A stretch of DNA of 64,000 nt from Tricholoma matsutake (taxonomy: Eukaryota; Basidiomycota; Agaricomycetes; Agaricales; Tricholomataceae), in the NCBI GenBank assembly GCA_026075535.2, contig AP026539.1, forward strand, positions 11,718,001 through 11,782,000, in the 5' to 3' direction. The translations under genes and the position numbers were made by a program. Below, piece by piece: positions 12,273 through 33,690 of this stretch. Within the stretch, counting starts at the first letter, position 1; every line of letters starts with the position of its first letter. The notes beneath the pieces are model-generated. The model ran no database searches. It saw only the letters and a list, made by a program, of their open reading frames with translations, and had not been told where the DNA came from.

Positions 12273-12319
12273 CTTGACCTAATTCAAATAACGGTCTTAG
12301 ACTCAACCAGAACACTCGA

Positions 12320-12525: not shown

Positions 12526-12586
12526 CAACATACGAGGACCAGGCTGAGTTGAGACCTATAGTCTTAACAAAAGGTCAAGCTGATCT

Positions 12587-13705
12587 ATGAAGTCCACCTA
12601 CCTAGGTGCAGACACAACATCTTTCAGACAAAGCCCAGACAGACCTCCAACCGGAGCATCATCATCAGGAAGAACCCCATGGTATAGATACCAGGGTCGA
12701 CTAGTACAATACTCGGAACCAGCACAGAAGTGGTTCTCAAGGAGAACCAGTGACGAAGAACCTTGATACCTCGACGAAGAGGATTTTAGATCCTTTGATA
12801 AAGAAGAAACCCCAGAACAAGATCCATTCTCCCTATCCAATGACAATGCCAACATGTCTACCGAACCCACTGCATCTACCAAGGAGATTAGAATCTGAAC
12901 CCCCTCTGACTTCACAGGGGACCAAACGAGAACTGCAAAGTTCTTACAAGAAGTAAAACTCTATTTGAGAGTGAACCACGGAATCTATGACACCAATGAG
13001 AAAAAGATCATCTTCGCGCTGTCATTCATGAACAGAGGAACTGCCGCGCCCTGGGCACAGACATGGGCAGAAAAGGAAGACCTAGGGACATGGTCAACCT
13101 TCAAAACGGCGCTCAAAGTAGTGTTCACCCCGATCGATGAAGCTGGCAGAGCCAGAACCAAAATGAAAACACTAAAGCAGGGACAGGACCTGGAGGATTA
13201 CATTGCGCAATTCCAAATCCTGCGAGAGAAGGCGGGGATCAATGACGATACCACCCTGATCAAACTCTTCATGGATGGGTTAAACCCCAAGCTCTTTGAA
13301 AGAGTATTCAACATGGAAACCATCCCTACAACCCTTGAGGGGATGATCAACGCTGCCTCCAAATACGACGGACAATGGAGGAGAGCAAAAGCGATAACTG
13401 GGAAATTACAGGAGAGCTGGGCAAAGAGGCCCGCGAACTCTAAACCAAAAGAAACCCCACTAGAAATCAACCAACTCTCTGACCAGGAGAGGGTCGAACA
13501 CATGAAGAAGGGGCTATGCTTTGTGTGCCACCAACCTGGGCACATAGCAACCAAACACAAGAAAGGAGAAAGGAGAACCGAGAACCAGTCATTCCCAAAG
13601 AAGAAAGGCAAAGAAGCCTACTCGAAGATCTGGGCGATCATGAAAGAACTTGACGAAGAAGGAAAGGAGAAAGCTTTCACCTTAATAGGGGATGAGGGTT
13701 TTTAA
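12587..13705 (+). pseudogene. gag: Gag of element B, two in-frame TGA codons
   Basis: One frame of 372 codons starts at ATG 12587, 18 bases after the LTR, and ends with TAA at 13703-13705. TGA codons interrupt it at 12764-12766 and 12896-12898; both would be CGA arginine with one C-to-T change. The conserved capsid block is at about 12910-13400 (KKIIFALSFMNRGTAAPWAQ, LEDYIAQFQILREKAGI). A zinc-knuckle-like motif, CFVCHQPGHIATKH (about 13519-13560), ends in His instead of Cys, a CCHH variant. The protein would form the particle and bind element RNA. Pol follows in the -1 frame through a GGGTTTT site. Confidence 0.88.
13696..13702 (+). promoter_or_regulatory. Candidate -1 ribosomal frameshift site between gag and pol
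   Basis: The last gag codons read GAG GGT TTT TAA, giving G GGT TTT in the zero frame, a perfect X XXY YYZ slippery heptamer directly before the gag stop. The pol frame is -1 relative to gag and opens just after a TGA at 13693-13695, so slipping here joins the two products. I did not establish a downstream pseudoknot. Confidence 0.6.
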
Positions 13706-13719
13706 AGAGGTGGCCTGCC

Positions 13720-16700
13720 TTGATGCCAGGTACCACCAAACTCTCTGTCTGCTCTGTACTGCCAGCTACTTTGAAGAATCAATCTATGCATTTAGATGTC
13801 AAAGTGCTAGGAGCAGGCAGAGGGAAAGCCGTCGAAACCAAAGCCCTACTCGACTCAGGAGCAGGAGGAATATTCATGAGCCACGAATTCACAAAAAGCG
13901 GCAGATTTGAGTTACACTCCCTGGAGAGGACAATCAGGGTCAAGAACATGGATGGAACCCCGAACAAGAAAGGGGAGATTTCCCACTACGCCAAAGGATT
14001 CCTGACGATCAATGGAAGATCGTTCCCGACAACGTTCACCATTGCAGGACTAGGGAAAGAATCAATCATCCTGGGTCTGCCATGGCTCAGAAGAATCAAT
14101 CCAGTAATCAACTGGAGAATTGGAACCTTCCAATTCCAAATGACCAACAGAACCCACCCAGAATTCTCATTTGGGAAAGGGAAAACCCTCATTGGGAGGG
14201 TACGAATGGAGAAACCCAATGACGAACATCTGGCTTGGCGCTGGAGAACGGTCAAAGAAGAAGGGAGGCCCTTCAAAGAAATGACAAAAGAGGAGAAACA
14301 GGCATGGGCCCAAAGGATGGTTGCCCAAGCAAAAGAAAAGATGGGCCTCAAGACAAAGGCAAAGGAAGAAGAGCAACTTACGTGGCACCACGCAGCCACT
14401 AAAGAACTAGAGAAGCTCGCCCTCAAAAAGAAATTGGCAAGTGAGGAACGACTAGCACAATGCCAAAGAATTGCCGCTAAAGCAAAAGAAATGGGAGAGG
14501 CACTCCGAACTAAATGGGAAGGGGGCAAGACACCCACCAAAACAAGGAGAGCAACAATCGAAGAAGTGGAGGATGAAGAAATTGCAGTCACGACTCTTCA
14601 AGATGCAGAGCCCATTGGGCCACAAGATGAAGAAGACACTGGGAAGGAAAACCCAGCACCGGAAAACCACAAACAGGCAAAGGAACAGGCAAAGGAACAA
14701 CTGGAAGGGACACCCGAACAAAGGATTGCAGATGATGAACTACTAGTCACCTACATCTGAGGAGAACCAGTCATCGGAATATTTGAACCAGCTAAAACAC
14801 CATTGACAGAGGAGTACAACGAACCAAGATACAGGTACTCCCAATCGACGAAGACAATCTCTCAGATCGTAAAGGCAAAGAGATCACCACGATATGCTTA
14901 TGGACAAAATATCTGGATCAGGGCAAAAACATCGGTCTCACAACACCTGACACACAAGAAGGAAGGAGACCCCGAACAAAAGACCCTTGATGAACTACTC
15001 CCCAAACAGTACAGGGAATACCGATGGATATTCGAAAAGGAAGCATCGGAGAGATTCCCAGAATCAAGACCCTGGGATCATGCAATCGAACTGAAAACGG
15101 ACTTTATGGCAAAAGATTGCAGGGTTTACCCATTGTCACCAGCAGAACAAAAGAAACTTGATGAGTTTCTCAACGAAAGCCTACAGAAAGGATACATTCG
15201 ACCATCAAAATTGCCCATGGCATCCCCATTCTTCTTCATTGCGAAGAAGGACTCAGACATGCTACGGCCCTGCCAAGATTACAGGTACTTGAATAATGGA
15301 ACGATCAAGAACACCTACCCACTGCCGCTGGTAGGAGACCTGTTGGACAAACTAAGGGGGGCAAAATGGTTTACAAAATTGGACATCCGATGGGGATATC
15401 ACAACATCAGAATCAAGGACAGAGATCAATGGAAAGCAGCCTTCAAGACAAACCGAGGGCTGTTTGAACCAATGGTGATGTTCTTCAGATTATGCAACTC
15501 ACCAGCAGCCTTCCAGGCAATGATGAACGAGATATTCCATGACATGATCGGAGAAGGATGGCTCGTGATTTATATGGACAACATCCTGATATTCTCCAAG
15601 GATCAGAATGAACACCAGGAAAGGACAAAGAGAGTACTGCAAAGACTGGCAGAAAATGACTTATACCTGAAGCCAGAGAAATGCAAGTTCAACATCCACG
15701 AAGTGGAATTCTTGGGTCTAATCATCCGACCCAATGAAATTGCCATGGACAACACGAAACTGGCAGGTATACAGGATTGGCCTACCCTGACTAATGTAAA
15801 GGCAGTCAGATCCTTCCTGGGATTTGGGAATTTCTACAGGAAATTCATTGGACATTTTGTGGAAACAAGCAGACCACTTAATGAACTGACAAAAAAGGAC
15901 AAGACGTTCAACTGGACAATGGAATGTGAACAAGCCTTTCAAATGCTGAAAAAGAAATTTGCAGAAGCACCGGTACTGCTGATGCCAGACCCAACTAAGC
16001 CATTCACAATCGAATCAGACGCCTCGAAACACACTACAGGAGGAGTGCTGAGACAAAGGGACATGAATGGGGACTGGCACTCATGCGGATACATATTGCA
16101 TGCGCTGACACCAATGGAATGGAACTACGAGATATACGACAGGGAGTTACTAGCGATAATACGATTGCTAGAGACCTGGAGACACTACCTAGTGGGTTCA
16201 GGACACCCGGTGGTAATCCTGTCGGACGACAAAAACTTGACGTACTTCTGAACAGCGCAGAAACTGAACAGATGACAGGCAAGATGGAGCTTATTCCTAT
16301 TGGAATTCGACTTGCAAATCGTCCATGTGCCTGGATCACAGATGGTACAGAGCGATGCGCTATCACAGAGAGCAGATCATGTACCAGAAGAAGACAACAA
16401 TAATGAAGACATCACGATGCTGCCAGAAACAGTATTCGTGAAATTCATTGACACCGAAATGCATGACTTACTCACAGGGAGTATCATGAAAGACGACCTG
16501 GTGAAAAGCACAATCGAGGCGCTAAAGACCAAAGGAACACCGCCGATAAAGTTGGCATTGGAAGACTGGAAGATAGAAGATGGCCTTCTATTCTTCCGAG
16601 ACAGGTGCTATGTCTCCGACAACGGAGAACTGCAGAAGAGGCTGGTGCAAAAGTACCATGAAGGAATAACCAGCAGACACCCTGGACAATGGCAGACTAC

Positions 16701-17898
16701 CAAAATGATCAGAAGGGACTACTGGTGGCCAGGAATGATGACATACATCAAGAACTATGTTGCTGGATGCGCCACATGCCAGCAAATGAAGGTCAACACC
16801 CACCCAATGACACCCCCACTGCAACCGATCAAATCCGAAGCAACGAGACCATTTGCGATGGTGACGACAGATTTTATAACTGACTTGCCAGAGTCCGACA
16901 GTTATGATGCACTCATGGTCGTGGTAGACCATGGGCTTATGAAGGGGGTAATTTTTATCCCTTGCAGGAAAACTGTGGATGCATTGGGAGCGGCCACCCT
17001 CTATCTAGACAATGTCTACAAACGATTCAGCCTCCCAGACAAGATCATCTCTGACAGAGATCCCAGATTTGCCTCGCAGCTGTTCCAAGAGCTAGGAAGG
17101 CTGCTCAGAATCAAGCTGGCAATGAGCACAGCATACCACCCCCAGACCGATGGGGAGACAGAACGGGTGAACCAGGAAGTGGAAGTATACCTATGGATCT
17201 TCTGCTCGAACAACCAGGAGAATTGGAAGCACCTCCTCCCGACCGTGGAGTTCACACACAACCAGAGGACACACTCCGTACAGAAGAACTCCCCGTTCTA
17301 CCTCATGATGGGCTATGAGCCCAAGGCGATCCCACTCCCCTACCTAAAGATGAACATACCGGCCATAGAAAAACGAATAGTTGCACTGCAATGGGCCCAA
17401 GACAAAGCAAAGGCAACTCACGAGTTGGCCAGACAAATGATGGTGGAAAGAATGACAAGGCACTTCACCCCATTCAAAGAAGGAGACAGAGTGTGGCTAG
17501 AAGCGAAGAACCTCAGAACAACGCACCAAACAAAGAAGCTCACACCGAAAAGTGAAGGACCGTTCTCTATCGAGAAGGTCCTGAGCCCACTCTCCTACCG
17601 ACTGAAGCTGCCAGAACAGTGGAAGATACACCCAGTGTTCCACGTGGTGCTCCTTTCCCCATATAAAGAAACCGAGACACATGGACCGAGCTTCCCAGAA
17701 CCGCTGCCCGATCTGATAGAAGGTGAATCGGAATATGAAGTGGAAGCGATCATCAGACATAAGAAGAAAGGAAGGACCATGCACTTCTTAGTGAAGTGGG
17801 TCGGATACCCGACCTCAGAGAACTCATGGGAGCCTGAGGGAAACCTGAAACACGCCAAGACAATCCTAGGGGCATATAAACAGCGACGACAGCTGTAG
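13720..17898 (+). pseudogene. pol: Pol of element B: protease, RT, RNase H, integrase, chromodomain
   Basis: A single frame of 1,393 codons, broken only by TGA at 14758, 16249 and 16273, all at plausible CGA sites. Aspartic protease: LLDSGAGGIFMSHEF (about 13848). RT: FFFIAKKDSD and CQDYRYLNNGTIKNTYPLP (about 15230-15320), WFTKLDIRWGYHNIRI (15370), then VIYMDNILIFSK (15567), where the second catalytic Asp of YxDD is Asn. RNase H: IESDASKHTTGG (16010), YDRELLAIIR, ILSDDKNLTYF. Integrase: H-H-C-C zinc domain with TSRHPGQ and CATCQQMK (16670-16790), catalytic [21 protein letters not shown] and TDGETERVNQ (16866-17180). Chromodomain: YEVEAIIRHKKKGRTMHFLV to about 17860, which targets heterochromatin in this class. 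The mutated RT aspartate and the stops make this copy inactive. Confidence 0.93.
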
Positions 17899-18027
17899 AA
17901 CCCCCAAGACCAAAACATCCACCGAACCAACAAAAGAAACCACAGAATGCTCACTGTCCCATCGACACTACACCTACCATGAACCCCAGCAAGGACTGGG
18001 CGAACAGTCATCGACCAACAACCACTG

Positions 18028-18446
18028 ATGAACATACTCCCTGGCAGACCCTCATGGGTATGCCCACATGGGATTCCCTTCTGGATAACAAGGGATGACT
18101 GGATAAAAGGATGTCCTCGACCTGTCCCAAATGCTGCCTCTTTGCCTGGAGGAACACGAAGGTGGACTACACCTGGGTGAGGACCCAATACAAAGAGTGG
18201 AGTTTTGAGGAAGAGCAAGACGGGGAAGACTACTTCTGCGTCGACAGGACAGGGCTTTGCCCTGGCATGAGGCCACTGGTGGGTGTGAGCAGACCGCTAT
18301 GGATCGACCTCCAGTGGAATGCCCACTACAATGAAGAGAGTGGATATAGCCTGGCAAGAAGGCTCCTGCTTGGAGAGCATGGAGAACTGGGAACCCTACT
18401 GCACTCCAACCGATTCCCTCAGACCCCGACCCACCCCACTTCCTGA
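18028..18446 (+). pseudogene. ORF3 of element B, conserved downstream of pol
   Basis: Begins ATG at 18028 with MNILPGRPSWVCPHGIPFW, continues RDDWIKR, then after a one-base deletion near 18109 in the frame SSTCPKCCLFAWRNTKVDYT (18111 onward) to a TGA stop after PTHPTS. The minus strand at 62358-62793 in element D encodes the same protein with many synonymous and conservative changes (shared DLQWN.HY, GELGTLLHS, CPHG and STCP.CC blocks). About 140 residues; the Cys/His pattern could bind zinc. It sits between pol and the 3' LTR on the same strand. I know no function; the position recalls env or accessory ORFs, but there is no signal peptide or membrane segment. Confidence 0.65.
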
Positions 18447-18503
18447 GTGGAGAAAAGAAGATGGTGATCAAAGTCAGTGACTTTGAAGATAGGGAGAGGG
18501 TGA

Positions 18504-19177
18504 TGTTATGATTTTCTGTTATCATAACCCACGATGACCAGATGTACGCCGGCAAGACCGGGTACTTTAATTTTCTCATTCAACTCAACTCACTTCTGAT
18601 GGGAGACGCTTTGACGCATGGTGACTCCATGCACCTGAACCCACTCCCACACATACTGTGACACGACAGCCCTTTGACATGAGGTCCATAATGTTGGACA
18701 CTCACGATTGACATGCTGCGCTGCAGCACTCTGTAACATCGGATGCCTCATGCAAGGCATGAGGCCTGTCTTTTCTATTGTTCTTTCTATTTATACTTGA
18801 TAACAATCCTGCATTCCGATTGGACAATAGGTATCTCCAAACCATATATAAGCTGTAGTAATACTGCCTGTATTCCTCAGCTTGACCTAATTCAAATAAT
18901 GGTCTTAGACTCAACCAGAACACTCGACAGCTTAGGAAGCCCCTAGCTGTGATAACTCGAACTTGACAGTTGGAAAGCCTCCAACTGTGATACACGAACC
19001 GATGGTCTACTCAGAAAGCCTCTGGGTACGGATAGCTGTATCGACTTAGGAAGCACCAAGTCCCGAACAGAACCCAATACAGTAAGAAAGCCTCTTACTG
19101 CAAGAACCGATACAGTTGGAAAGCCTCCAACTGCAACATACGAGGACCAGGCTGAGTTGAGACCTATAGTCTTAACA
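18504..19177 (+). repeat. 3' LTR of element B
   Basis: Matches 11792-12569 apart from a shorter palindrome/minisatellite block. The hairpin array is conserved at about 18925-19135. It is followed directly by the CACCC target duplication and the continuation of element A pol. Confidence 0.9.
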
Positions 19178-20495: not shown

Positions 20496-21634
20496 TGATG
20501 ATACTTGACCAGGAAACCCAAACAAAACCCACAATAAGGGCTTGAATGGTATAACACTAGTTAGAGGAAGGTTGCAAGGTGGTACTAAATATCACCGCTG
20601 TTACCCAAGGCTATGAAAACAACTCTAGAGGGTGTCCGATGAAGTTTGATAAGGTTCGAGGGTATTCAAAGGGCTACGAGGGTGTTAGAGAGACGTTCAA
20701 TAAAGATCAAGAGTGTACAAAATGTTGTGATGATGTTAGAGGGAAGTTCAATGAAGTCTGGGAGTGTACAAAGTGTTGCAATGGTGTTCAAAGAAAGTTC
20801 AAAGAGGTGCAATGATGTTCAAAGAAGTTTGAAGGGCTTTATAGAAGACAAGGATGCTTTCAATGATGGCTGAGGATAGACTATAGGGATGTAGAAAGGC
20901 GTCGAGAGGGGATAGATGATATGCAATAGTTTTGAGAAGCTAGTACAAGGAGTTCGAGGAAATTTGGCGTAAAACACTGAACTTCAAGACTAAGTTGAGA
21001 TGCTTGGACTCAAGAGAATGGCTCTTAAATCAGATGATTGGTGCGAGAGGACAATCTATTCTGTCTTTCTAAGTAGCTAGTACAAGGCTATATATGTTTG
21101 GGAGAGGTGATACTAAAAAGGAAATAAAACATGAGGAATACATGAGGCAAGATATAAAACAATAGAGAATCTTTGCAAATCATAGAATAAATGAAAGAAG
21201 ATGAGAAGGGAAACATATAGAGTCACAATTTATCACGGGTACCTGTCCCCATGATCCAATATATCATCAAGATGTCAAAGCGCCACAGTCACATCCTAAA
21301 ATCCCGTCGTTGTGTCTCCTCATGTCCGGTGGTGCTCGATATGCAACTCACTAACTCTTACAAGGTGTGCTGCATGTATCCAAAGGGCAGTGCAATAGGT
21401 ATACAGCAGCTGAAGACATTTGAAGTGCTGCGAAGTCGATCAAAGTTGTTCAAAGTGTTGCAAAGTTGTTCAAAGTTGTTCAAAGTTGTTCAAAGTTGTT
21501 CAAAGTTGTTCAAAATAGTCTCGGAGTGGTCTCGCGAGGTTCGTAGGGGTTCGTAGGGGTTGGGAGCATGTGTGTTGATGTGTTGATGCCTTTGGATATG
21601 TTCCCAGAGCTTAGTGCGCATGGTGGACCTATCA
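20496..21634 (-). repeat. 3' LTR of element C (element orientation minus)
   Basis: 1,139 bases matching 30369-31493. Differences are dominated by TTCGAAG-type motifs that read TTCAAAG or TTTGAAG in one copy or the other. It contains a TTGTTCAAAG tandem repeat (21439-21516). Confidence 0.9.
21439..21516. repeat. TTGTTCAAAG tandem repeat in C-type LTR
   Basis: About seven 10-base units, some imperfect. The other LTR has fewer units and reads TTGTTCGAAG (about 31315-31365), showing both unit loss or gain and CpG loss. Confidence 0.85.
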
Positions 21635-21767
21635 TCTGAAATACTGACTGTCCCAGTCAGCTGATCAGAGTCACGTGCGAAATGTGTGATTGTGTTGAAG
21701 CTGTAAACAAAACTCGAAAACTTCTCGTTCTCCTTCCTTAACCTCTAAACCTCCAACTACTTCTACC

Positions 21768-24090
21768 ATGTCCCTCCTTGCCAAACCTAACACCAAAGTC
21801 CTCAAATATGCCAAATCGATGCCAGATCGCAGTGTCGCAGAAGAACTTGACTTTGAAGTGTGGGGGAAAGGGTTTTGTGAGAAGATGGTAAGTTTCCCCT
21901 TCTTATTCGATATTCAAGGATTCTAATATGATACGTTCAGGCGGAATATGATGAACTGGGAGACGACTTGGGCGAGGAATGTGACTCAACTGTGCAACAA
22001 GTTGTCATCGAAGTATTTGAGCTGTTCAAACTGATGGCTCGATGCAAATAGCTTTCGTGGGGGGGGCCTTCTTGTTTGCAGATCTGAGTGAGCAGGTAGA
22101 GTGAGAGCAAAGGGAAGATGAAGTGAGACAGGTTCAGGAGGAGGAGGAGGAGGCTCGCAGGGTGGAGGAAGATGTGAAGAGGGTGAAGATCGAGGCTTGA
22201 AGGGAGGCATTAGGAGATGCTCGAAATGCAGCTCTTGCTGCATTTTGTGCTAAAACTTTGTTGAAGGAGGAACTGCAGCGACAAAATGTGGAGCTCACAG
22301 CAGAAGCATGAGTGATCGAGGGGCTAGATGCTGGAGAGGAGGACAAGGAAGAAGATTTGGGAGGATTGCCAATAATCAGGATTGGGAAGCGGAAGGCAGT
22401 GGAGATTGAGGGAAGTGAGGATGAGGAGGACAAGATCATCGAGGACAAGGTAGAAAGCAAGCAGAGGAGGTTTGCTGAGAGCAGACTTCTCAACTTTGAA
22501 GGCCCAGTAAGTTTTTTGTTTTGTTTGGCTTCAATGTTTTTTCTGATTGCTAACAATGTCGTAGTGCAATCAATGTGCTAGGATGAGATCCCAGCCATTG
22601 TGCATTGTCAAGGAGGGAGCCCCAAAGTGCACGAAGTGCACTCAGGCAGTGCAGGGGTGCTACTGGGAAGGGGTCTCGAGGCGGGGACTTCACAAAGGTG
22701 AAGTGAGAGGATTCAGGGTTGCAAAACCAGATTCGCACCCAAAACCAGGTACAAAACCTATTCGAAATGATTTCGTAGTGTATGCTAACCTGTCCTTCAG
22801 ATCGAAAGTACCTCGAATTTGCATCGTAGGCCCCATTGTTGACATTGATATGCTCGACCTGGAAACCCCAAACAAAACCTACTAAAATGGCCTTGGATGG
22901 TATAACACAAGTTAGAGGAAGGGTGCGAGGTGGTACTAAAAGTCACCAAATCCAACCCGATGGAGGCGTAAGACATCCGAGTGGGTACGAACGGTTTCGA
23001 GAATGTTCGAAGGGGCACAAGACCTCTCAATGTAAGTTCGAGGGAGATCGATAAGGTTCAAGGGTTATAGGAGACATTCGAGGTAATTGGAAATGGTATA
23101 GACAGTTTTACGAAGTGTGTAGAAGGAATATGTGAGTGGGGCGGCAATGATAGTGACGAGGGGCGATAACGATATATGACAGACAAAGGGTTCAAGGGCT
23201 AATACGAAGTTTCGAGGAAGTTCGCGACGATTCGCAGAACTTCGGGCTAGATGAGAGGCTTGGACTCAAGAGCTGAACTCTTAAATCAGACTATAGTGAA
23301 GTAAGACAATCTCTTTCTTCCTTTTTTAAGTGAGTAACTATTACAAGTTTAAATAAGTTCTGAAGAGGTACTACCAAAAAGGGTAAGGAGAACATGAGGC
23401 CTACATGAGGTGAAGTCTAGGATAAAAGATAAACCTCTATCACTGAGTAAAACAATAAAAGATAAGCATTAAATCTCCGGAGTCCTGATATGTGCAAAAT
23501 GTACTTGTCCTATGTCATTACAAACCATCTAAACATTTGAAATTCACCTCATCGTGTCCTTAGTCGCCTCGCGCATGCTCAGTCGGTGGCCGAATAGCTT
23601 GGTCAGCCTTGCTATGACTCGTCGGCGTGTAGTAAGAGTGCCAGAGGCCATGATGACAGCAGCCGAGCATGTCTGAAGTGTTCCTATATTGTTTGAGGGG
23701 GATCGAGGGGGATCGAGGTAGTGCAAGGCCACTCGAAGCCTGTTTGGGAGCATTTTGCGAGGCTCAAAGGTGTTCAAAGGGTTCCAAGTGTCGTGGGAGA
23801 TTGATGCGGAACTGCTGTGAGTGGTTACAGACCTTATAGCGCTAGGTGGACCTATCAACATTGAACTGGTCACAGGATGTTCGAGACCTTCAAAGGAGAA
23901 AAAAAAGTGGTCGAAGGGAAAGGTAAAGGTGAAAGCGAAGGAAAGTGCGGGGATTCAAGGAGGCTGAGGCTGTGGATGAGGAGTGGGTGATGTGTTGCCA
24001 GATCCTCATGAAGAAGTTGGCAGGGATGAAGGTTGAATTGGAGGTCTTGTGTAGGCAGATAGAAGTGGTGGAGGAGAGGTTGGAAGAGTA
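21768..24090 (+). pseudogene. Antisense accessory gene of element C: coiled coil plus Zn2Cys6-like cluster
   Basis: Starts at ATG 21768 (MSLLAKPNTKVLKYAKSMPD), 134 bases inside the LTR and antisense to gag-pol. Exon 1 ends at 21887; intron 21888-21940 (GTAAGT ... CAG) joins AEYDELGDDLGEEC. A Glu/Arg-rich coiled coil follows (about 22095-22300) with frame damage near 22050 and three TGA codons at likely CGA sites. Intron 22507-22564 (GTAAGT ... GTAG) leads straight into C-x2-C-x8-C-x8-C-x2-C-x6-C (22565-22665; CNQC, CTKC). The gene is cut by a solo LTR (22846-23857) and resumes with a second Glu/Lys-rich helix ending in ERLEE and TAG at about 24090. A similar gene lies antisense in element A (31950-32907). 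The Cys spacing resembles fungal Zn2Cys6 DNA-binding domains; function is unknown. Confidence 0.65.
22846..23857 (-). mobile_element. Solo LTR, C-type relative
   Basis: Starts TGATATGCTCGACC and ends GGTGGACCTATCA, resembling the element C LTR ends, with the 4-base duplication ACAT on both sides (22842-22845 and 23858-23861). Internal similarity to the C LTR includes GGTATAACAC(A/T)AGTTAGAGG near 22896. It interrupts the antisense gene of element C. Confidence 0.8.
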
Positions 24091-24348
24091 GAAGATTTTG
24101 TTGTTCTTTCTGTTTTATAATTTTGATTTTTTGTGAGTCTTGAAAGTAATGATAAGAAAAGTAAGAAAGAAAAGAAAGAAGAAAGAAAAAAAAAAAAGGA
24201 ATAAGGGAAAGGCTCAGTAGATCATCATGGCTGAAAAACCCTTTTGGAGTTTGCGTGACCATGCTATAATGCGATATCGCAACTTGTATTGTACACTAAA
24301 AGAAATCGAGGTCATAGGTAAGTGATTGCGAACAAAGAGAAAGGGATA

Positions 24349-27300
24349 ATTATTCATCTTTGAAGTCCGGAAGGTCTTCGGGAATATCTTCGTCAACATT
24401 TGAAGTGTTTCGCAGTTTTTCGAGATGTTCAGAGTCGATATCGAGGAAGTTTGGCGGCAGGGGAATTGATTTTCATGCAAAATAGGGAAGGAGTCAGAAG
24501 GCTGCAACTAGTCGATGAAATACTGATCCATCGAGTTTGCAGATGATGTAGGCTCCTCCATAGTTTTGATCGATGACAATGAGGGGACCTAAATATTGAG
24601 GTTGCATCTTGCAATTGAGGGATTTCTCGATTTGAATGTTGCAAAGTAGGACCAGGTCGCCTTTTTCGAAGTCGTAGTCATGCATTGTTCATTTGTGAAC
24701 AAGTTCGAAACGTTTCACAGCTTCGAGTCGAGCAGTATAGACTTTCAAATAGAGAATTTTGAGGTCGGATGATCGTTTCTGTAGTGCTATTGCTCTTCAA
24801 GCGATGAGATCAGTTGTCGATAAGATAGAATTGGGAGGGGGTTGCAAGTATGTTGCTTCAGAGATGTTGAGTGGGATTAGGGGATGTGATCCTGTAATTG
24901 CAAAGTAAGGAGAGCAACCCATGCATCTACGAACTGTAACTCATTCTGCCCAAAACACTGAGTGTGCTCCAGCTGACCATTTGCTCTGATCTCCATCGAC
25001 TGCTTTGAATAATGATTGTCGAATATCAAAGTGAGCTCATTTGACGATTCCATTCGCATGAGAGTTGTAGCTGCTAATTTGAATGTGGTTAATGTGATAT
25101 CGTTTTGAAAGGTACTCCAATGCTGCGATGAATGCTGATCTGTTATCGCTCACGATTTCGTATAGCAAACCCCATCTACAAATGATATCTTTGAAGATCC
25201 AGTCCCTGAGGGTCATGGCATTTTCTCGTCAAAGGTTTTGCCACTTGGGATAAGTCGTTAGTCAATGTCAACCTTGTATGATATACTTGAATCTGCTTGA
25301 GGGAGGCATTTGCATGGTATCGATGTAGACTTTGCCAAATAAAGGTGCGGGTGTGGCGACTGTAGGTGGGATAAGGAGATTTCGAGTTTGTCATACCTGG
25401 CACAGGTGGCAAGTGCGAATATACCATGCGATGTCTGCTTTCATGTTAGGCCACCAGAATCATAGGGAAATAATGGCTTTCATCGCAAAGACCATTTTGT
25501 GTCTGATATCATTGTGAGCTGCATGAATAACTTAGAGATGATGTTTGGGAATTGCGACGATTTTGTGAGCTCCGTGCGAGTCCTTCCTCCAAAGTTTGCC
25601 GCAATCTAAGAAGAATTCAGTCCAATATCAAACAAAGGTAGCATATTTGGAATCTGATAAATCTGGAGGTCGTACCAAATCCTCTAACCATTTTCGAACC
25701 TGAATTATTCTTTTATCTTCCTTTTTCACATTGTTTGTTTGTGGGACATCATCGTAGGTCAGATCCTCCCCCTTACTGAGATCTGAGGAGAGGGAGAGTG
25801 TCAAAACTCGATAGGAAGTGAAGGGTCGAGTCATAATCGGATTGATTTGGTGTATGAAACCATGAAGATGGTAGATCCAGTCTCCGAAATCATTTTTGTT
25901 ATCAAACTGATCATCTTTGTCTTGTGGAGGACGTCTCGAAAGTCCATCTGGACCATGATGTGTACCTACGACATGAACTAACATGAAGTGAAAAGTGAGG
26001 ATCGAGATGATCCATCGATTGATGCTAGTGCTAGGTGCAATATCAGGGTTCAAGAGCATGCCTTTGCATCAACTTCAACGATAAGGTTTCGGACCCCTAT
26101 TAGGTACAATTGAAGTGCTCTGAGAGCATGATATAGACCATAGAGTTTGAGTTTCACTTGTGAATACCAGGATTTGTGGTCGTTAAGCATGATCGAGCCA
26201 AATCGACTGTAATATTGTTTTCGAGGGTTGTCAGGATTGCATTGTGTGAGAAAGAAACCAATAGTGATGTATGAAGTATCGACTGATAGGATAACTGGGG
26301 CATCGGATGAGTAGTCGATAGCACGAATTGCTGGGGAGCTTGCTTCAGGTCTTCCTGTGCTGCGATTTGTTTTGGTCTGAATTTGAAAGGGACATCTTTT
26401 CGTGTAAGGTGTATTAGAGCTGTAGCACGTTGAGTGAAGTTTCAAATAAAGATACAACAAACTCCAATAGTTCCTAGAAATGCCTTGACTTTGGTAAGAC
26501 TTTGACAAGGTCCCCAATTGCTAACCACTGCGATGCGAGTGGGATCAGCCATACAACCTTCGATATTGCATCGATGACCTAGAATGATTATTTCAGGGAT
26601 GCAAAGGTAAAGTTTTGGACCAGAAAATGTTCCTCCGCAATACTTCATGTGTTGGACTATACGATTTAGATTCTCGAAATGTTCCCAAATGAAGCGTCGA
26701 ATGCCTGGATTATTGGCAATCATTTTGTAAGATCCTCTGATAGTTTGATATTCTGATTTTGGACCCTTAACTGGTGTGTCATCGATGTAAGGGATGGTGA
26801 TATGAGGGATTTTGGGTTGTAGGATGAATGTTACGTCATTGTGCAAGATTGGAACTGAGTTTGTCCAACCCATTGGTAGGGTGACAATTTGAAGCGCTCT
26901 GAAAGGTGTCTGAAACATCATTAGATCTCGAGATGATTCTGTGACTTTCCTTTTGTCGAATGCGACATATAGGTCCAACATTCCACCGCAAGCGCATCTG
27001 CCAAATTGTTCAGCTAGATGCTTGGGGATTGGGACGATGCCAGAGTGCTGAATCATTACTTGATTAAGAGGTTCGAGACTGTGGATGATTCAAAGTGATT
27101 TTGCATCTTTCTTCACAACACAAAACCATCGCAATCGATACGATGAGTTTGATGACTCATAAACTCCTGCTTCTATCTTCTTCTTCAGCATTTTACAGAT
27201 CTGTTTGTACAGACCAGGAGGTATAGGGATATTATGTTTGACCTGTGGAGTGTGAGGAATAACAGGGAATTTGATAGGAGGAAAGAAGTCGGGGCGAAAG

Positions 27301-28462
27301 CTTCCTTGTTCTTGTTTGGTCCATGCAAAACCCATTTTGTGATTTCAAATAAAGTCGTGCATAAGCTTTCGTTCTTCTGGCCATAGGAAATTGCCAGGAT
27401 GGTTTTTGTCAATAATAGCTTTGCATTCGAGTGTATATCGGGGAGAAGGGATGAATGATGGGGGGTGAGGATTGAGTTTTGGCATTTTCTTGAGGGGGTC
27501 ACCAGTGATTGTTCGAATGATGCGAAATCGATCAGGTAGTTCAGTAATAACTGGTCGAACTTTCTGTGCAACTGGTTTGTATTTCTTCTTTGAGGCTGCA
27601 AAGATTGGGTATATAGAGTCGGTTGACAAGATGTGGGGAGGGGAAATGATAGCAGAGTCATGCATAGAGGTGGCCATCGAGGCCAATAAAGACGTTGCAT
27701 ACTGGTGACTAGCCATTAAATATAAGTTTGCAAGAATTGAGGAAAAGGAAAAGGGGTTCGAAGAGTTCAAGGAGTCAATATCAGGAATAATTGCAGTGTA
27801 CTCAATAGTTATAGAGGAATTAGAATGGTCGAAAGAAATAATGAGGGCACACTAGTTATTCTCCAAGATTTGATCCTCTAGTTGCAAAAATCCTTGTGAA
27901 CTACTCTTCTTCGATGATTAGATCAGGGGATAGTTGGAATAGCGCAGGATCATGTCGAGTTTGAATCGAATATTGTTATCGTTTGCACTTCATTTTGATA
28001 ATTCTTCACCATACTCTCTGTGAGAATGTCGAATGGTTGTCTGAGCAAAATGTCATATCCTGGATCACAGATGATGTGTATTTGCATATACAGAGTGATG
28101 CTACCGACTTTGCAAGGTACATTCCATGCTAAACCTAGACTCTGGTCAATACCACTGTTAGCCAATTGTAGAGGGATGTGTATCAAAGGATCATATGCGA
28201 GACCAAGTTTGTGACAGACTTCTTCCGACATTGTGATGATCGATGAACCCAGATTGACTACACTTTCGACTGGATTTCTGCCATTGACGTTCATAATAAC
28301 TGATCTAATAGAGTGTGATTCCTTTGCTGCGATAAAAGGTTTGGGTATTTCTCCATGGCGAAGACTGCTAATATAGGTTTTGTAAGGGTCATCAATTATG
28401 AAAATGTCATCATGAAGGAGATTTGTAGCGTTATTTCCTTCAGGTTGCTGGATGCGATGCAC
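24349..28462 (-). pseudogene. pol: Pol of element C: protease, RT, RNase H, integrase
   Basis: Read leftwards. Protease: VESVVNLGSSIITMSEEVCH (about 28230), where the catalytic D-S/T-G motif reads N-L-G. RT: NIPIPPGLYKQICKMLKKKI (27220), LRWFCVVKKDAKSL, GGMLDLYVAFDKR (26990), RALQIVTLPMGWTNSVPILH (26890), TIPYIDDTPVKGP (26790) with both catalytic Asp kept. RNase H: ILSVDTSYITIGFFL (26300). Integrase: RTCHLCQVWQTRN (25400) with the zinc residues, then VYIDTMQMP, IVSDNRSAFIAAL and NSHANGIVK, where the catalytic Glu codon reads AAA and is followed by TGA. The C-terminus ends near 24349 (DLPDFKDE). No chromodomain was seen. Many stops and phase changes. Confidence 0.82.
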
Positions 28463-28729
28463 AGTGACCTGTTCCTTCCATTTCGTACGAACTTTGGGGT
28501 GATAGCAATAGTAATTCTTCAGGTGTTAGAGTAATAATTGGTGTTTTCATCGATCGAGTGAAGGCATCTTCAGTGATTTTGTCCTTTTGAATGGGGGCTT
28601 GGGTATGGTATGATGGGCCATCTTTTGCTTTTCCTGTTGATGTGAAGTTGTGTTCATGAGGAGGTAGGTACAAATTTTCTTTAGCGCCATTGTAGGGATG
28701 TATTACCGGTTGCGATGGTTTCTTGGAGG

Positions 28730-30201
28730 TCAAAGATGGTGCCGAATTTGAAGTAGGTGGGTTGGTTGCTGTGGACAATATCGATGGTGCAGGTAGTTGT
28801 GGGATGAACCGTTTGACCGTTTGACCGGTGCAGGGATCGAGGGCCATGAGGTAGGAACTGTTACCACATTCGAATCAGTTTGCGCAGAAGGTCTACCACT
28901 TTGCAAAGCATATATCTCTTGTTCAAGTTGTGCGATACGATCTTCGGCCATTGTGGATAGGTCGGTAATTTGGTAGACACCTCTGGATGGCATCAAAGAA
29001 ACTGTCGAAGGTGCGATATTATACATTAGCAAAGGGGTAACGTTAGATGGAGGGTTTCATTGAGTCCATTCGTCAATCCTGTCCTTGATAAAATGACCGG
29101 GGATGCTTCGAGGAGTGAATTGACCATTTGGGAGAACAATTTTGCCTTCAGTGTTCTTCTTACACTTTCCTTTGTTGATATAAGACTGGCAAACCAAGCA
29201 ATCACTAATAAAATGTCCTGTAAGCCCACAAAAGATGCAAACTAAAGTTTCGAGCTGATCCGAACAAAATCCACTGTTAGGTCGAGTAGTGTTCATGGTC
29301 TTCAAACCTGCTAAAACTCTTATGAGAGTGGCTGCAATTTCTCGAGGATTGCCATAAGGTCTTCCGATTTAATTTGGGGCAAAGATGTCAAGGTTGTTGG
29401 GATTGCCGAAGGTGCTGAAGAATGCGAATTGAGTAGCAATGTCGAATCCAAGCCGATAGATCCTGCTAAAACGAATTTTGCTGCTGCATGAATATTGTCA
29501 AGTGGGTAGGGGTCGCTGGGGTAGTGATCGGGGAATTTTAGTTTGAGTCGTCAAGCGATTCTAGCCCATAAGCCTGGCTGGAAACCCTGGATGAAGGCTC
29601 TGCTTTGTTCAGCATTGGAAATCCTGCCTTTAGTAGATAGAAACTTTGTAATGTTATAGAATGATCAAAAGTATAATCCCAAATCACTTGCGTTGTAAAT
29701 ACCTATGCGAAGTTGTTCACCAATGAGTTTGTCCATGTCTGAAATTGACCATTTCCGATTGTCTTTGGAACCAGGGTACAGTTGGTGAATAGCGATGTGA
29801 AAGTTCTGGAACGAAATGCCTGTGTCATATTCTGGAATTGATTCCCAGAGCTTGGAAGTGTTTATATCGAGGTAGCGACAAGCGTGCTTCTTCATATCTT
29901 CCGAGTTCGTGACATTGCACACCAAGAAAAGCAATTCAAGCTTGTTAAAGTATCTGCAAAGTTCTTGTGGCTGGGTAGGGTTGAATTTTGGAGCCGTGGA
30001 ATGACCACAAGCTGGCATCGTTGCTTGTGTAGTCATGAATGCAATGTTTCTAGGGGTAGGGGTTAAGACTTGTGTGAATGATGGTAGAGGAGTCGAAGTT
30101 GTTGGAAGGATGAATAAAGATGTAGATGATGAAGATGAAGAAGTAGAGGATGATGTTGAGGGCAATGAGATTGGTGAAGGGAATAGTTGACGATGAGTCA
30201 A
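28730..30201 (-). pseudogene. gag: Gag of element C
   Basis: Starts around 30201 with a Ser/Thr-rich leader, then FNPTQPQELCRYFNKLELLF (about 29960) and EQLRIGIYNASDLGLYF (29690), a Gag-like capsid. A zinc knuckle, CIFCGLTGHFISDC, follows at about 29240-29200, with a separate Gly/Pro-type segment after it. Frames are broken near 29660 and 29310. It packages the element RNA in intact relatives. Confidence 0.75.
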
Positions 30202-30347
30202 TTCTGCTTCAGAAACAGGGATTAGAATATCTCCCGATTGTTTGAGAGATTTGAAGGCGTGGCGAGTGTCGATTTGTAGGTTTCTAGCTTGTGTTGGCCT
30301 AAGCAGGGATATTCGAGATGGATTAGGTGATGAAATGATTTAGAAAC

Positions 30348-30365
30348 CCCTCGCGGTGGGCTCCA
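30348..30365 (-). promoter_or_regulatory. Candidate tRNA primer-binding site of element C
   Basis: Three bases inside the 5' LTR (minus orientation), the minus strand reads TGGAGCCCACCGCGAGG. It begins with TGG, as a site complementary to a tRNA 3' CCA end should. The tRNA species was not identified. Confidence 0.5.
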
Positions 30366-30368
30366 AAA

Positions 30369-31493
30369 TGATGATACTCGACCAGAAAACCCAAACAAAA
30401 CCCACAATAAGGGCTCGAATGGTATAACACTAGTTAGAGGAAGGTTGCAAGGTGGTACTAAATATCACCGCTGTTACCCAAGGCTATGAAAACAACTCTA
30501 GAGGGTGTCCAATGAAGTTTGATAAGGTTCGAGAGCATTTGAAGCACTACAAGGGTGTTAGAGAGAAGTTCAATAAAGATCGAGAGTGTACAAAATGCTG
30601 CGATGACATTAGAGGGAAGTTCAATGAAGTCCGGGAGTGTACAAAGTGTGGTGATGGTGTTCGAAGAAAGTTTGAAGAGGTGCAATGATGTTTGAAGAAG
30701 TTCGAAGGGCTTTATAGAAGACGAGGACACTTTCAATGATGGCTGAGGATAGACTATAGGGATGTAGGAAGGCATCGAGAGGGGATAGACAATATGCGAT
30801 AGTTTCAAGAAGCTAGTATGAGGAGTTCGAGGAAATTCGGCATAAAACACTGAACTTTGAGACTAAGTCAAGACACTTGGACTCAAGAGAATGGCTCTTA
30901 AATCAGACAATTGGTGTGAGAGGATGATCTATTCTGTCTTTCTAAGTAGCTAGTACAAGGCTATATATGTTTGGGAGAGGTGATACTAAAAAGGAAATAA
31001 AACATGAGGAATACATGAGGCAAGATATAAAACAATAGAGAATCTTTGCAAATCATAGAATAAATGAAAGAAGATGAGAAGGGAAACATATAGAGTCACA
31101 ATTTATCATGGGTACCTGTCCCCATTGATCCAATATATTATCAAGATGTCAAAGCACCACAATTGCATCCTAAAATCCCATCGTTGTGTCTCCTCGTGTC
31201 TGGTGGTGCTCGATATGCGATGCACTAACTCTTACAAGGTGTGTGTATCTGAAGGGCGGTGCAATAGGTATATGGTGGCCAAAGACATTCGAAGTGCTGC
31301 AAAGTCAATCGAAGTTGTTCGAAGTGTTGCAAAGTTGTTCGAAGTTGTTCGAAGTTGTTTGAAATAGTCTTGGAGCGGTCTCACGAGGTTTGTAGGGGTT
31401 TGTAGGGGTTTGTAGGGGTTGGGAGCATGTGTGTTGATGTGTCAATGCCTTTGGATACGTTCCCAGAGCTTAGTGTGCATGGTGGACTTATCA
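30369..31493 (-). repeat. 5' LTR of element C (element orientation minus)
   Basis: 1,125 bases matching 20496-21634; begins TGATGATACTCGACC on the plus strand and ends GGTGGACTTATCA. Followed by the TCGC duplication and the chromodomain part of element A. Confidence 0.9.
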
Positions 31494-31497
31494 TCGC

Positions 31498-31857
31498 CCA
31501 CCCGGGTACTCACTCAGTCACCCTGCGGCCTCTGGACCACATGAGGGCCATCCACCCTGTTTTCCATGTCTCCCAACTAGAAAAACACTTCCCAAACACA
31601 ATTCCAAATTGAGCACAACCTCCACCTCCTCCTATCACTATCAATGACAAGCTCGAGTATGAAATTGCTGAAGTCCTCCACTCCAAGGTTGACAACTGGC
31701 GCTGCTGCAAGATTCTCTACCTCATCCGATGGGAAGGTTACCAGGGAACTGATGAAGAAACCTCCTGGCTACCTGTTATAGAACTTGACCACGCCCAAGA
31801 ACTCCTCGCAGACTTTCACACCTGCTACCTGCAGAAACCCTGTCCATTACCCACTTG
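31498..31857 (+). pseudogene. pol: Pol of element A, part 4: integrase C-terminus and chromodomain
   Basis: Resumes after element C with HPGTHSVTLRPLDHMRAIHP and VFHVSQLEKHFPNTIPN, then after a TGA the chromodomain KLEYEIAEVLHSKVDNWR, ILYLIRWEGYQGTDEETSWL and LDHAQELLADFH. The aromatic residues Y (LEYE), W (RWEGY) and W (SWL) of the methyl-lysine cage are visible. It ends at TGA around 31857. Confidence 0.85.
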
Positions 31858-31949
31858 AAGCCTATTCATGTTACTCATTCACTCAGTCAGAACTCAGAAA
31901 CAAATTTTATTGCAAAATAAAAAGAATCTTTTTGGATCCAACAGGATCC

Positions 31950-32907
31950 CTACACTACCACCTCTGCTTCTCCCTCACCCTCTTTGTTCCCCACACCCTC
32001 TTCATTATCATCACTGTCATCATCTTCTTCCTCCTCCTTCTTGTCATCCACCTGCCTTTTCTCCAGATATCTCTGGAAAGTCACCCAGGCACCCCCAGAC
32101 TGGCGGATCCCACGCCTTTCCCAGCAGGACTCTCGCACTGCCTGCTCCACTTCATCTTCATCCCTCCCCAGTGCTTTTGTCCTCCACCCAATCTGGGTCC
32201 AATGCATCCCAGACCTCCTCCATGGACTCCCATACTGCAGTTGCCACCTCACCAAATCCCTTATTCACCGTCTCCATCAGCTACCCCAGCAGCTCCACAT
32301 TCTCCCTGCTATTCCCTGTCAACCCCATCATTCCTGCTGTTTGGGGGGCAGGGGCCTCCTGCCCCTCCCACACTACCTCTTCGCACTTGTGTTTGAGGTG
32401 CGTGCAGTTATTGCACATGCATCCCCTCATGCCCATCTTGAAACAAGAAAGTTTTTGATATTTGCATCTAGGCCACTTATCAGTAAAAGAAGGCTGAGAA
32501 GTAAAACAAGAGACTCACCTTTTGCAGGGCAAGGTGGCCTGCACCTGCACTGGACCCTCAGACTCCTCTGACCCCACCCTCACCTTCAACTTGGTGACTT
32601 TCTTCTTCTTTGGGGACTTGCTCCCCTTGGCCTCATCCCCCAAACCCACAGCCGCAGCCGCCCGCTTCTTCTCTGCTCGTCTTGCGGCCTCCTTCTGTGC
32701 CTCTGCCTGGCGCACCTCCTCTGCCTTTGCAGCATCCTCTGCTGCTCTTTGTGCCTCCTGCATCCTCCGCTCCTCCTCCCTCATCGCTTCCTCCTCCAGC
32801 TCTCTCATCTCCCATTCCATTTGCTCCTTCATCGCCCACTCCCTCTGTTTGTGTTGGGCCTTCATCGTGGCCAATTTGATGTTCATGGAGACTGCTGGGT
32901 GGGACAT
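31950..32907 (-). pseudogene. Antisense accessory gene of element A: coiled coil plus Zn2Cys6-like cluster
   Basis: Minus strand, starting near 32907 (MSHPAVSMNIKLATM), about 80 bases inside the 3' LTR and antisense to pol. Residues 20-80 form a Glu/Arg/Ala-rich coiled coil, followed by a Lys-rich KSPKKKKVTKLK. Removing intron 32518-32468 (GTGAGT ... CCTAG) joins LPCK to RCKYQKLSC and gives C-x2-C-x6-C-x9-C-x2-C-x6-C (second half CNNCTHLKHKC), the exact Zn2Cys6 spacing. After TAG codons at plausible CAG sites and a phase change the frame ends in an acidic tail (EEEEDDDSDDNEEG) near 31950. Position, orientation, domain order and intron site match the gene in element C. Other possibility: a captured host transcription-factor-like fragment. 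Confidence 0.62.
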
Positions 32908-32984
32908 TCAGAAATTCAACCAACTTCCTTATTCGGACTCAAACACTCACGTGCCTTGTAGGCTTGGCACTAAGGGGGAAATAC

Positions 32985-33690
32985 TGTCAAGAACCATTGC
33001 TCGCCCGATTGGAACCCACATCCATCTGACCCTTTTCTGCACCTCAAATCTGACATTCATCAACTCCTCCCACTTTTGTTCCCAGCCATCTTGCACTGCC
33101 CACACTGCTGTGCACCAGGCCGCCTTGTACAGCAACCATGGCCACCTTCCCAAGGCTGCTGTCCCTTTTGCAAATTTGACTATGGGTTCCTGTGTGGCTC
33201 CCACTAGGTAATTTATCTATGCAGTCGAGACACTGCTGCAGCCTCCGCTTCCATTCTGCCTTTATTCTGGACTACAGTATTTAAGCTTAGTCAGTTTTGC
33301 CTTGTATTCCTCAGTTCATATATCAACATAGACTCGACAAAGCCCCATCTTTAACTTGCCAATCTAAATCTTGTTCTACTCCTACCTCTGTCCTCTAAGA
33401 GTCTGAACTTCATTCAACTCAACCTCTAGTTCTTCCTCCCAAGCTTTGGTCTCATCTCAACTTAACCCAAGTCCCTCCATACTCCTTCCCACATTTACCC
33501 ACCCTACCTCCAAACCTTCGTCTCAAAATTAGGACACCAGACGAGGTGAAGGGCACAGCTTCTTATAAGCTGAAGCTGAGTCCTTTCTGTTCCCCTTCAC
33601 AGGACCCGCTATAACCCGACAACTTTCCATTATCGACATCCACAGGGTCTGACCGGATTCCGATGTGCCTTCTAGGATCAGTTCTTAACA
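32985..33690 (+). repeat. 3' LTR of element A
   Basis: 706 bases, TGTCAAGAACC ... GTTCTTAACA, preceded by the purine tract AAGGGGGAAA and followed by TTTGG. Contains TATTTAAG then GCCTTGTATTCCTCAG. Confidence 0.9.

What the first reader, a model, noticed from the sequence alone, without database searches (positions are those of the whole stretch)
21768..32907. Two Gypsy lineages carry an antisense, spliced coiled-coil/Zn2Cys6-like gene just inside the 3' LTR
In element C (plus strand, 21768-24090) and element A (minus strand, 31950-32907) a gene opposite to gag-pol starts 80-134 bases inside the 3' LTR and runs towards pol. Both have the same order: N-terminal segment, Glu/Arg coiled coil, intron of about 50 bases at or inside the first C-x2-C, then a cysteine cluster. 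In A, splicing 32518-32468 creates C-x2-C-x6-C-x9-C-x2-C-x6-C exactly; in C the spacing is C-x2-C-x8-C-x8-C-x2-C-x6-C. A and C differ in LTR, target-duplication length and presence of a chromodomain. Antisense extra ORFs are known from some plant LTR elements; I know of no named fungal family. Homology of the two genes is inferred from architecture and intron position. A regulatory or silencing-escape role is only a guess.
Basis: partly seen in the sequence, partly recalled or inferred. Interest (0 to 1): 0.88.

Follow-up and report, generated by a model that had tools for sequence, protein, structure and literature searches.

The report
Antisense spliced genes in mushroom retrotransposons
Two very different families of jumping genes in what is almost certainly the matsutake mushroom genome each carry an extra protein gene written backwards at their tail end, kept intact by natural selection and probably used to control the element, although what the protein does is not yet known.

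Summary
The window is almost certainly Tricholoma matsutake chromosome 2. Gene A (minus strand from 32907) and gene C (plus strand from 21768) lie opposite to gag-pol, between pol and the 3' LTR. Both copies here are broken, but the genome holds hundreds of related places. In the capped match lists, gene and pol end within 2.5 kb are on opposite strands in 83 of 83 C and 44 of 44 A pairs. Sixteen pol ends left unpaired in those lists were fetched: all carry the gene. Selection acts on the antisense frame across the introns (dN/dS 0.30-0.36 for A, 0.09-0.36 for C exons), the lowest of six frames each time. A has one intron, C three. A third lineage exists. Most copies keep CACGTG or a CpG decay form about 100 bases before the ATG. 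Not shown: common ancestry of A and C, zinc binding, expression, function. Antisense accessory genes are known from plant elements and Botrytis Boty (brtn): a new variant of a known kind. Likely role, inferred: an HBZ-like nuclear regulator of the element.

The parts
32519..32907 (-). Gene A exon 1: N-terminus, Glu/Arg/Ala-rich predicted coiled coil, basic KSPKKKK stretch, ends inside the first C-x2-C
   Evidence: dN/dS 0.31 in this frame over 30 copies, codons 1-125
32468..32518 (-). Gene A intron, 51 nt, GTGAGT...CTGATAA...CCTAG, phase 2
   Evidence: the donor/acceptor pattern was found in 28 of 30 copies (one of these, L022, with a mutated acceptor); same site in the 7 pol-first copies aligned; third lineage by eye from ORF ends
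32281..32467 (-). Gene A exon 2, Cys6 cluster, ends at a premature TAG in this copy
   Evidence: Cys region dN/dS 0.15, 0.18 in pol-first copies
31950..32280 (-). Remnant of gene A C-terminus (acidic), frameshifted in this copy
   Evidence: open in other copies
32948..32953 (-). CACGTG box upstream of gene A (at -46 here, at about -105 in most copies)
32985..33690 (+). 3' LTR of element A (partner at 5655-6353, 90% identical); the sense sequence AAGGGGGAAATAC just before it looks like a polypurine tract
31613..31858 (+). Element A chromodomain, C-terminal end of pol, opposite strand to gene A
   Evidence: Pfam PF00385 E=1.7e-4, 21.9 bits, below the curated cut-off of 25.1
20496..21636 (-). 3' LTR of element C (partner at 30369-31495, 90% identical)
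21672..21677 (+). CACGTG box upstream of gene C, at -96
21768..21887 (+). Gene C exon 1 (40 aa)
   Evidence: dN/dS 0.21; pol-first 0.19
21888..21940 (+). Gene C intron 1, 53 nt here, 51 in most copies
   Evidence: GTAAGT...TTCAG in 21 of 21 aligned copies
21941..22506 (+). Gene C exon 2, Glu/Arg-rich predicted coiled coil; broken by stops in this copy
   Evidence: dN/dS 0.20 and 0.31; pol-first 0.09 and 0.23
22507..22564 (+). Gene C intron 2, 58 nt, phase 0, just before the first Cys
   Evidence: GT...TAG in 21 of 21 aligned copies
22565..22748 (+). Gene C exon 3, Cys6 cluster and basic tail
   Evidence: dN/dS 0.33; pol-first 0.29
22749..22808 (+). Gene C intron 3 (GTACAA...TGCTAAC...GAAAG); the acceptor is inferred from reading frame and varies or is lost in some copies
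22809..24091 (+). Gene C exon 4 (basic, acidic, C-terminal coiled coil), interrupted at about 22846-23857 by a degraded solo LTR
   Evidence: dN/dS 0.36; pol-first 0.27
24494..24688 (-). C-terminal end of the element C integrase, downstream of gene C on the opposite strand; no Pfam match on its own

Best explanation
Each of these Gypsy lineages carries its own accessory gene on the strand opposite to gag-pol, between pol and the 3' LTR. SHOWN from sequence: constant position and strand; presence in every sampled pol end of both lineages; short introns kept with splice and branch motifs; purifying selection on the antisense protein comparable to that on the sense chromodomain; a conserved CACGTG box about 100 nt before the ATG. 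INFERRED: an antisense promoter at the 3' LTR boundary (the CACGTG box may be a host bHLH site) drives a spliced mRNA; its product is a nuclear, coiled-coil (dimeric) protein whose Cys6 cluster binds metal and probably nucleic acid or chromatin; it acts in trans on element copies, tuning LTR transcription or countering silencing, as HBZ/APH proteins of HTLVs do from an equivalent position.
For: Antisense placement (window copies included): chromodomain on the opposite strand in 28 of 30 A loci; pol in 26 of 30 C loci; 83 of 83 and 44 of 44 nearby pairs opposite with pol downstream; 16 of 16 pol ends that were unpaired in the lists carry the gene. Coding: dN/dS 0.30 for A in the antisense frame, other frames 0.82-1.08 except the third-position mirror frame 0.45; C exons 0.20-0.36, lowest of six frames each time; controls fetched by pol, A 0.36 and C 0.09-0.29, again the lowest frames; sense chromodomain 0.24. 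Splicing: reading frame kept across introns in open copies of both families; relative P0002 reads CKRC straight across A's junction without intron residues. Promoter: CACGTG family box at -112 to -85 in 24 of 30 A and 24 of 25 C copies; of 23 CpG palindromes only this one is so placed in both. Basic stretches such as KSPKKKK (A) and KEKKRSSKGKGKAKAK (C) fit a nuclear protein (sequence, inference).
Against: No RNA data, so transcription, splicing and translation are not shown. No Pfam or PDB family is matched at an accepted score, and the fold model has low confidence in the Cys region, so DNA or zinc binding is unproven. P0002 is a single record of unnamed source and could come from a gene without the intron. 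Splice acceptors of C intron 3 vary among copies. One A gene lies on the same strand as a nearby RT (1 of 41 pairs), and 2 of 5 third-lineage genes with an RT within 9 kb are on its strand; nested elements could explain this but were not examined. The CACGTG box was noticed before it was counted.
Confidence: 0.55

Rival explanations
1. The antisense protein acts inside the replication cycle rather than in regulation: the Cys cluster and coiled coil serve as a nucleocapsid-like, packaging, nuclear-import or integration cofactor.
For: Cys clusters and coiled coils are also typical of gag-associated proteins (general knowledge); constraint is similar to that on the chromodomain.
Against: Such proteins are usually made from the genomic (sense) RNA (general knowledge); an antisense, intron-bearing gene would need its own transcript. 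Both genes have basic stretches and acidic or Lys-rich tails more like nuclear regulators (sequence, inference).
Confidence: 0.2
2. The functional product is the antisense RNA (dsRNA or interference control of the element); the protein is secondary.
For: Antisense transcripts of LTR elements can act as RNA (reviewed in PMC7264820 and PMC10186651, passages seen).
Against: Low dN/dS in the protein frame, continued across introns, in copies fetched by pol and not by the gene; an RNA role does not predict this.
Confidence: 0.1
3. A former host gene (or another element's gene) was captured once, carried along, and has no role for the element.
For: Multi-exon structure is unusual for a retroelement gene (general knowledge); a DNA-level origin or antisense insertion could explain introns.
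Against: Presence in 16 of 16 sampled pol ends, several diverged lineages and constraint across subfamilies argue for a role; no host family member was identified in the searches made, though the genome itself could not be searched exhaustively.
Confidence: 0.1
4. The antisense ORFs are chance mirror frames of sense sequence, and the introns and cysteines are over-reading.
For: Long open frames also lie on the sense strand here, as Glu/Lys-rich coding often makes the complement open.
Against: In every segment tested the sense-strand frames score above the antisense frame (whole A gene: two near 1 and the mirror frame 0.45; C segments 0.24-1.68); splice sites are conserved.
Confidence: 0.02

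Closest known systems
brtn, antisense gene of Boty-like Gypsy elements (Botrytis, Sclerotinia; Zhao et al. 2011, known here only through PMC7264820, PMC8365987 and PMC4227169 passages)
   Same: Fungal Gypsy element with an extra gene antisense between pol and 3' LTR; the Botrytis element also has a chromodomain.
   Different: Ascomycete host. Sequence not at hand, so homology, introns and Cys cluster were not compared.
Plant antisense aORF-3R: maize Grande gene23, rice RIRE2, Retand TRP28 (PF04195) ORFs (PMC7264820, PMC11963269, passages seen)
   Same: Same position and strand, kept in most copies, suspected nuclear regulatory role.
   Different: No PF04195 match in our proteins; ours have short introns and a Cys6 cluster; fungal.
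HTLV-1 HBZ and HTLV-2/3/4 APH proteins; antisense transcripts AS1/AS2 (of BLV, name recalled) (PMC10186651, passages seen)
   Same: Antisense gene at the 3' LTR, spliced, nuclear regulator; the AS1/AS2 antisense promoter uses an E-box. A functional analogy.
   Different: No bZIP match, Cys6 cluster instead, retrotransposon without a known env, no sequence relation looked for.
Fungal Zn(2)-Cys(6) binuclear cluster (PF00172)
   Same: A's spacing C-x2-C-x6-C-x9-C-x2-C-x6-C fits the canonical pattern (pattern recalled).
   Different: No accepted Pfam match; only P0002 at E=4.2 over 14 positions. C's x8 second loop departs from it.
marY1, known matsutake Gypsy element (6047 bp, LTR 426 bp; PMC10211490 and PMC10627285, passages seen)
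   Same: Same host, same superfamily.
   Different: LTRs of A (about 700 bp) and C (about 1140 bp) are much longer; marY1 sequence not compared.

Membership tests
Antisense accessory ORF between pol and 3' LTR (aORF-3R) | Gene lies between pol and 3' LTR | tested here: met
Antisense accessory ORF between pol and 3' LTR (aORF-3R) | Opposite strand to gag-pol | tested here: met
   83 of 83 C pairs, 44 of 44 A pairs with the pol end; with the RT list, A genes 40 opposite and 1 same, third-lineage genes 3 opposite and 2 same within 9 kb
Antisense accessory ORF between pol and 3' LTR (aORF-3R) | Present in most copies and conserved like other element proteins | tested here: met
   16 of 16 sampled pol ends (one, L086, lacks a Cys-exon match); dN/dS similar to chromodomain
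Antisense accessory ORF between pol and 3' LTR (aORF-3R) | Own antisense transcript | not testable with these tools
   no RNA data; conserved CACGTG box is indirect
brtn of Boty | Sequence homology to BRTN | not tested
   sequence not at hand
Retand TRP28 (PF04195) | Match to PF04195 | tested here: not met
   no match in Pfam scans at E up to 1 and 10
HTLV HBZ | bZIP domain | tested here: not met
   no bZIP in Pfam scans; works-like comparison only
Fungal Zn2Cys6 (PF00172) | Six-Cys spacing C-x2-C-x6-C-x5-12-C-x2-C-x6-8-C (recalled) | tested here: inconclusive
   A fits, C does not (x8)
Fungal Zn2Cys6 (PF00172) | Score over the curated Pfam cut-off | tested here: not met
   best 8 bits against 21
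Fungal Zn2Cys6 (PF00172) | Binds two zinc ions and DNA | not testable with these tools
   fold model below pLDDT 50 over most of the Cys region
Genes A and C as one family | Profile similarity beyond Cys spacing | tested here: inconclusive
   hhalign P=0.023; 1 of 60 full shuffles but 15 of 60 Cys-preserving shuffles score as high; an earlier run gave E=0.18
Genes A and C as one family | Same intron site | tested here: not met
   phase 2 inside C-x2-C (A) against phase 0 before it (C)

The most novel reading that the evidence does not exclude
A regulatory cassette (CACGTG promoter box, coiled coil and Cys6 gene with introns) is shared by Gypsy clades that split long ago, either kept from a common ancestor or swapped between clades, making a fungal counterpart of HBZ: an antisense, spliced, LTR-boundary transcription factor gene that controls its own element or disarms host silencing.
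Probability: 0.2. Interest if true: 0.82.

Novelty: new variant of a known kind. Interest (0 to 1): 0.62.

Why it matters
Antisense accessory genes of LTR elements have been described mostly in plants and deltaretroviruses, and the reviews seen here call the function of the plant ones unknown. Here are at least two lineages, RTs only 17-23% identical, with hundreds of related places in one chromosome-level genome and clear protein-level selection across introns. That makes the open question of what such antisense genes do directly testable: open copies exist, the promoter box is predicted, and Cys mutants of the protein are easy to make. It also matters for annotation, since such genes may be masked with repeats or left as hypothetical proteins (one partial matsutake protein of this family is in the protein database as L208DRAFT_694466).

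Tried and rejected
Chance or mirror ORF: contradicted by frame-wise dN/dS. Selection bias from choosing copies by protein similarity: tested with copies fetched by pol; the result stands.

A-C homology: hhalign with few rows E=0.18; with more diverse rows P=0.023, but Cys-preserving shuffles reach it in 15 of 60. Left open.

External relatives: (A, single protein, 307 candidates) found none; (A profile) found 2 among 7994 scored, a matsutake fragment and unnamed P0002; (C, single protein) found none among the 7999 candidates scored. Pfam gave nothing over a cut-off. PDB: best A hit a designed coiled coil, E=0.024, all others 0.38 or worse. Fold model of P0002: mean pLDDT 61, most of the Cys region under 50, so no fold search was run. 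No collection of other fungal genomes was searched, so spread among species is untested.

Literature. The search joining Zn2Cys6, LTR retrotransposon and antisense found 0 papers, as did antisense ORF, Gypsy and basidiomycet; the library lacks most subscription papers. Papers were seen as listings or passages only.

Rows dropped before counts: C dN/dS alignment used 21 of 25 copies with a matched exon 1 (L031, L032, L049, L055 left out by me); 5 more of the 30 loci had no exon-1 match. One search used 147 places of the list (second-exon rows left out) and the first 103 rows of the list. Pol-first dN/dS used 7 of 8 A loci (L077 left out) and 7 of 8 C loci (L086 left out). The chromodomain comparison used 18 of the 28 A loci with a match.
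Full report
WHERE IT IS. The window is G000:C2:11718001-11782000 of a 161,040,721-base, 13-contig genome. Total size and the length of contig 11 (10,203,996) equal those printed for Tricholoma matsutake Tma1.0 (PMC10211490, passages seen), so the host is taken to be matsutake, an ectomycorrhizal mushroom. Element C (LTRs 20496-21636 and 30369-31495) sits on the minus strand inside element A (LTRs 5655-6353 and 32985-33690, plus strand); each LTR pair is about 90% identical, so both are old insertions.

THE TWO GENES. Gene A starts at 32907 on the minus strand and has one intron (32518-32468). Gene C starts at 21768 on the plus strand and has introns at 21888-21940, 22507-22564 and, by reading frame, 22749-22808. 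Both window copies are broken: A by a stop and a frameshift, C by stops and by a degraded solo LTR at about 22846-23857 inside its last exon. In other copies the spliced A frame is open for 270 aa or more in 8 of 30, and the C frame is open through all four exons in one of 21 aligned copies.

ALWAYS IN THE SAME PLACE. Searching the genome with A gave 202 matches with 150 of 1284 candidates scored; with the C Cys region, 219 with 150 of 718 scored; a copy can match exon by exon, so these are not copy counts. In the 30 A loci fetched (the window copy included), an LTR-A match lies upstream in 30 (one only 57 nt) and a chromodomain on the opposite strand downstream in 28. In the 30 C loci (window copy included), pol lies on the opposite strand in 26 and an LTR-C match in 27, two of them only about 85 nt. 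Separate searches with the pol ends gave coordinate lists; within 2.5 kb, 83 of 83 C pairs and 44 of 44 A pairs are on opposite strands with pol downstream of the gene. With RT matches within 9 kb the count is 40 opposite and 1 same strand for A, and 3 opposite and 2 same for the third lineage. Only part of each list pairs up (83 of 150 C genes, 44 of 147 A genes, 2 of 103 third-lineage genes); the lists hold only best matches. So 16 pol ends that had NOT paired (checked) were fetched: all 8 A and all 8 C carry the gene, on the opposite strand (L086 lacks a Cys-exon match). In the same window element B (plus strand, chromodomain present, RT 46% identical to the third lineage's RT and 34% to A's RT end) has 606 nt between pol stop and LTR and no match to either gene: a negative control.

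IT IS A PROTEIN GENE. Pairwise Nei-Gojobori over 30 A copies gives dN/dS 0.30 in the predicted antisense frame (Cys region 0.15). The other five frames give 0.95, 0.82, 1.02, 1.08 and 0.45; the last is the frame sharing third positions, expected to mirror the signal. In C (21 copies) the predicted frame of each exon segment gives 0.21, 0.20, 0.31, 0.33 and 0.36, the lowest of the six frames each time; the runner-up frames are 0.33, 0.31, 0.43, 0.42 and 0.41. Because those copies were found by protein similarity, the test was repeated on copies found by pol: A 0.36 (Cys 0.18, n=7), C 0.19, 0.09, 0.23, 0.29 and 0.27 (n=7), again lowest (runner-up 0.60 for A; 0.24, 0.27, 0.46, 0.36 and 0.35 for C). 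The sense chromodomain of A gives 0.24 (n=18). Selection continues in the spliced frame on both sides of the introns, which supports the splice sites. P0002, a 218-aa database relative (44% identity over 48% of the first query sequence; 970-nt contig, source label 'lgn', not explained by the tool), reads CKRC straight through A's junction: what a spliced transcript or an intron-less relative would show.

MORE THAN TWO LINEAGES. P0002 finds a further diverged set in this genome. The five loci fetched (L067-L071) all have the gene opposite a chromodomain; read by eye from the ORF ends, the intron lies at A's site. Diverged C copies (exon identities down to about 44-50% in L061-L066) keep the same order where the locus is complete. 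The RT of the A side (a third-lineage RT in L069, 80% identical to A's RT end; and A's RT end itself) is 17-23% identical to that of C, both to the decayed window copy, which has no Pfam RT match, and to better-kept C copies. A and C are thus very distant Gypsy clades.

A SHARED PROMOTER BOX. About 100 nt before the ATG, CACGTG or a one-step CpG decay form lies at -112 to -85 in 24 of 30 A and 24 of 25 C copies; within 160 nt it is present in 4 of 4 third-lineage and 5 of 5 further C copies. The undecayed CACGTG itself is present in 7 of 30, 6 of 25, 2 of 4 and 1 of 5. Of 23 CpG-containing palindromes tested the same way, only this one is so placed in both families (next best 0.33 in A). The surrounding sequences look otherwise different. 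In the window copy of A it is at -46. This was noticed after looking at the sequences, so it is a lead, not a planned test. E-boxes also control antisense transcripts AS1/AS2 (of BLV, name recalled; PMC10186651, passage seen).

ARE A AND C RELATED? Not shown. Profile comparison aligns the Cys clusters and a W-E-G motif after the last Cys (P=0.023), but 15 of 60 shuffles that keep the Cys columns score as well, and the intron sites differ by 8 nt and in phase. The shared place, order and promoter box favour either common origin or strong convergence; the evidence does not choose.

MECHANISM. Shown: position, strand, introns by sequence signature, protein-level constraint, presence in all sampled pol ends. 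Inferred: antisense transcription from the LTR boundary, nuclear location, dimerisation through the coiled coil, metal and nucleic-acid binding by the Cys6 cluster, and a regulatory role on the element. The HBZ/APH proteins are the best functional analogy (PMC10186651, passages); a replication cofactor is the main rival.

KNOWN OR NEW. [quoted passage not shown] passages seen; Zhao et al. 2011 itself not read). In the listings and passages seen from ten literature searches I met no basidiomycete case and none with introns and a Cys6 cluster; the library is open-access only. Hence 'new variant of a known kind'.

CHANGES AFTER CHECKING.

Noticed in passing
   Followed up: yes
window 11792-19177: Element B, a chromodomain Gypsy element on the plus strand (LTR pieces 93-95% identical), has only 606 nt between pol stop and 3' LTR and no antisense gene.
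   Followed up: partly
L067-L071: A third chromodomain lineage with a diverged A-like antisense gene; its LTR-A match in L067-L070 is only about 70-82 nt long.
   Followed up: partly
window 21644-21660 and C copies upstream of exon 1: Element C copies shown keep a palindrome CTGACTGTCCCAGTCAG (one has a base change) between the LTR edge and gene C; role unknown.
   Followed up: no
gene C exon 2, G-run at window 22059-22066: A G-run of varying length shifts the exon 2 frame in some copies; replication slippage is likely, programmed slippage not excluded.
   Followed up: no
window 21423-21514 and 31282-31363: A 10-base tandem repeat (TCAAAGTTGT, TCGAAGTTGT in the partner) inside the C LTRs.
   Followed up: no
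window: CpG depletion (observed/expected 0.43 in the window, 0.31 in A's tail, 0.67 in element C) and TGA stops where CGA would fit suggest C-to-T decay at CpG.
   Followed up: no
L066: A C-type element appears to be inserted in the antisense gene region of an A-like element, as C is inserted in A in this window.
   Followed up: no
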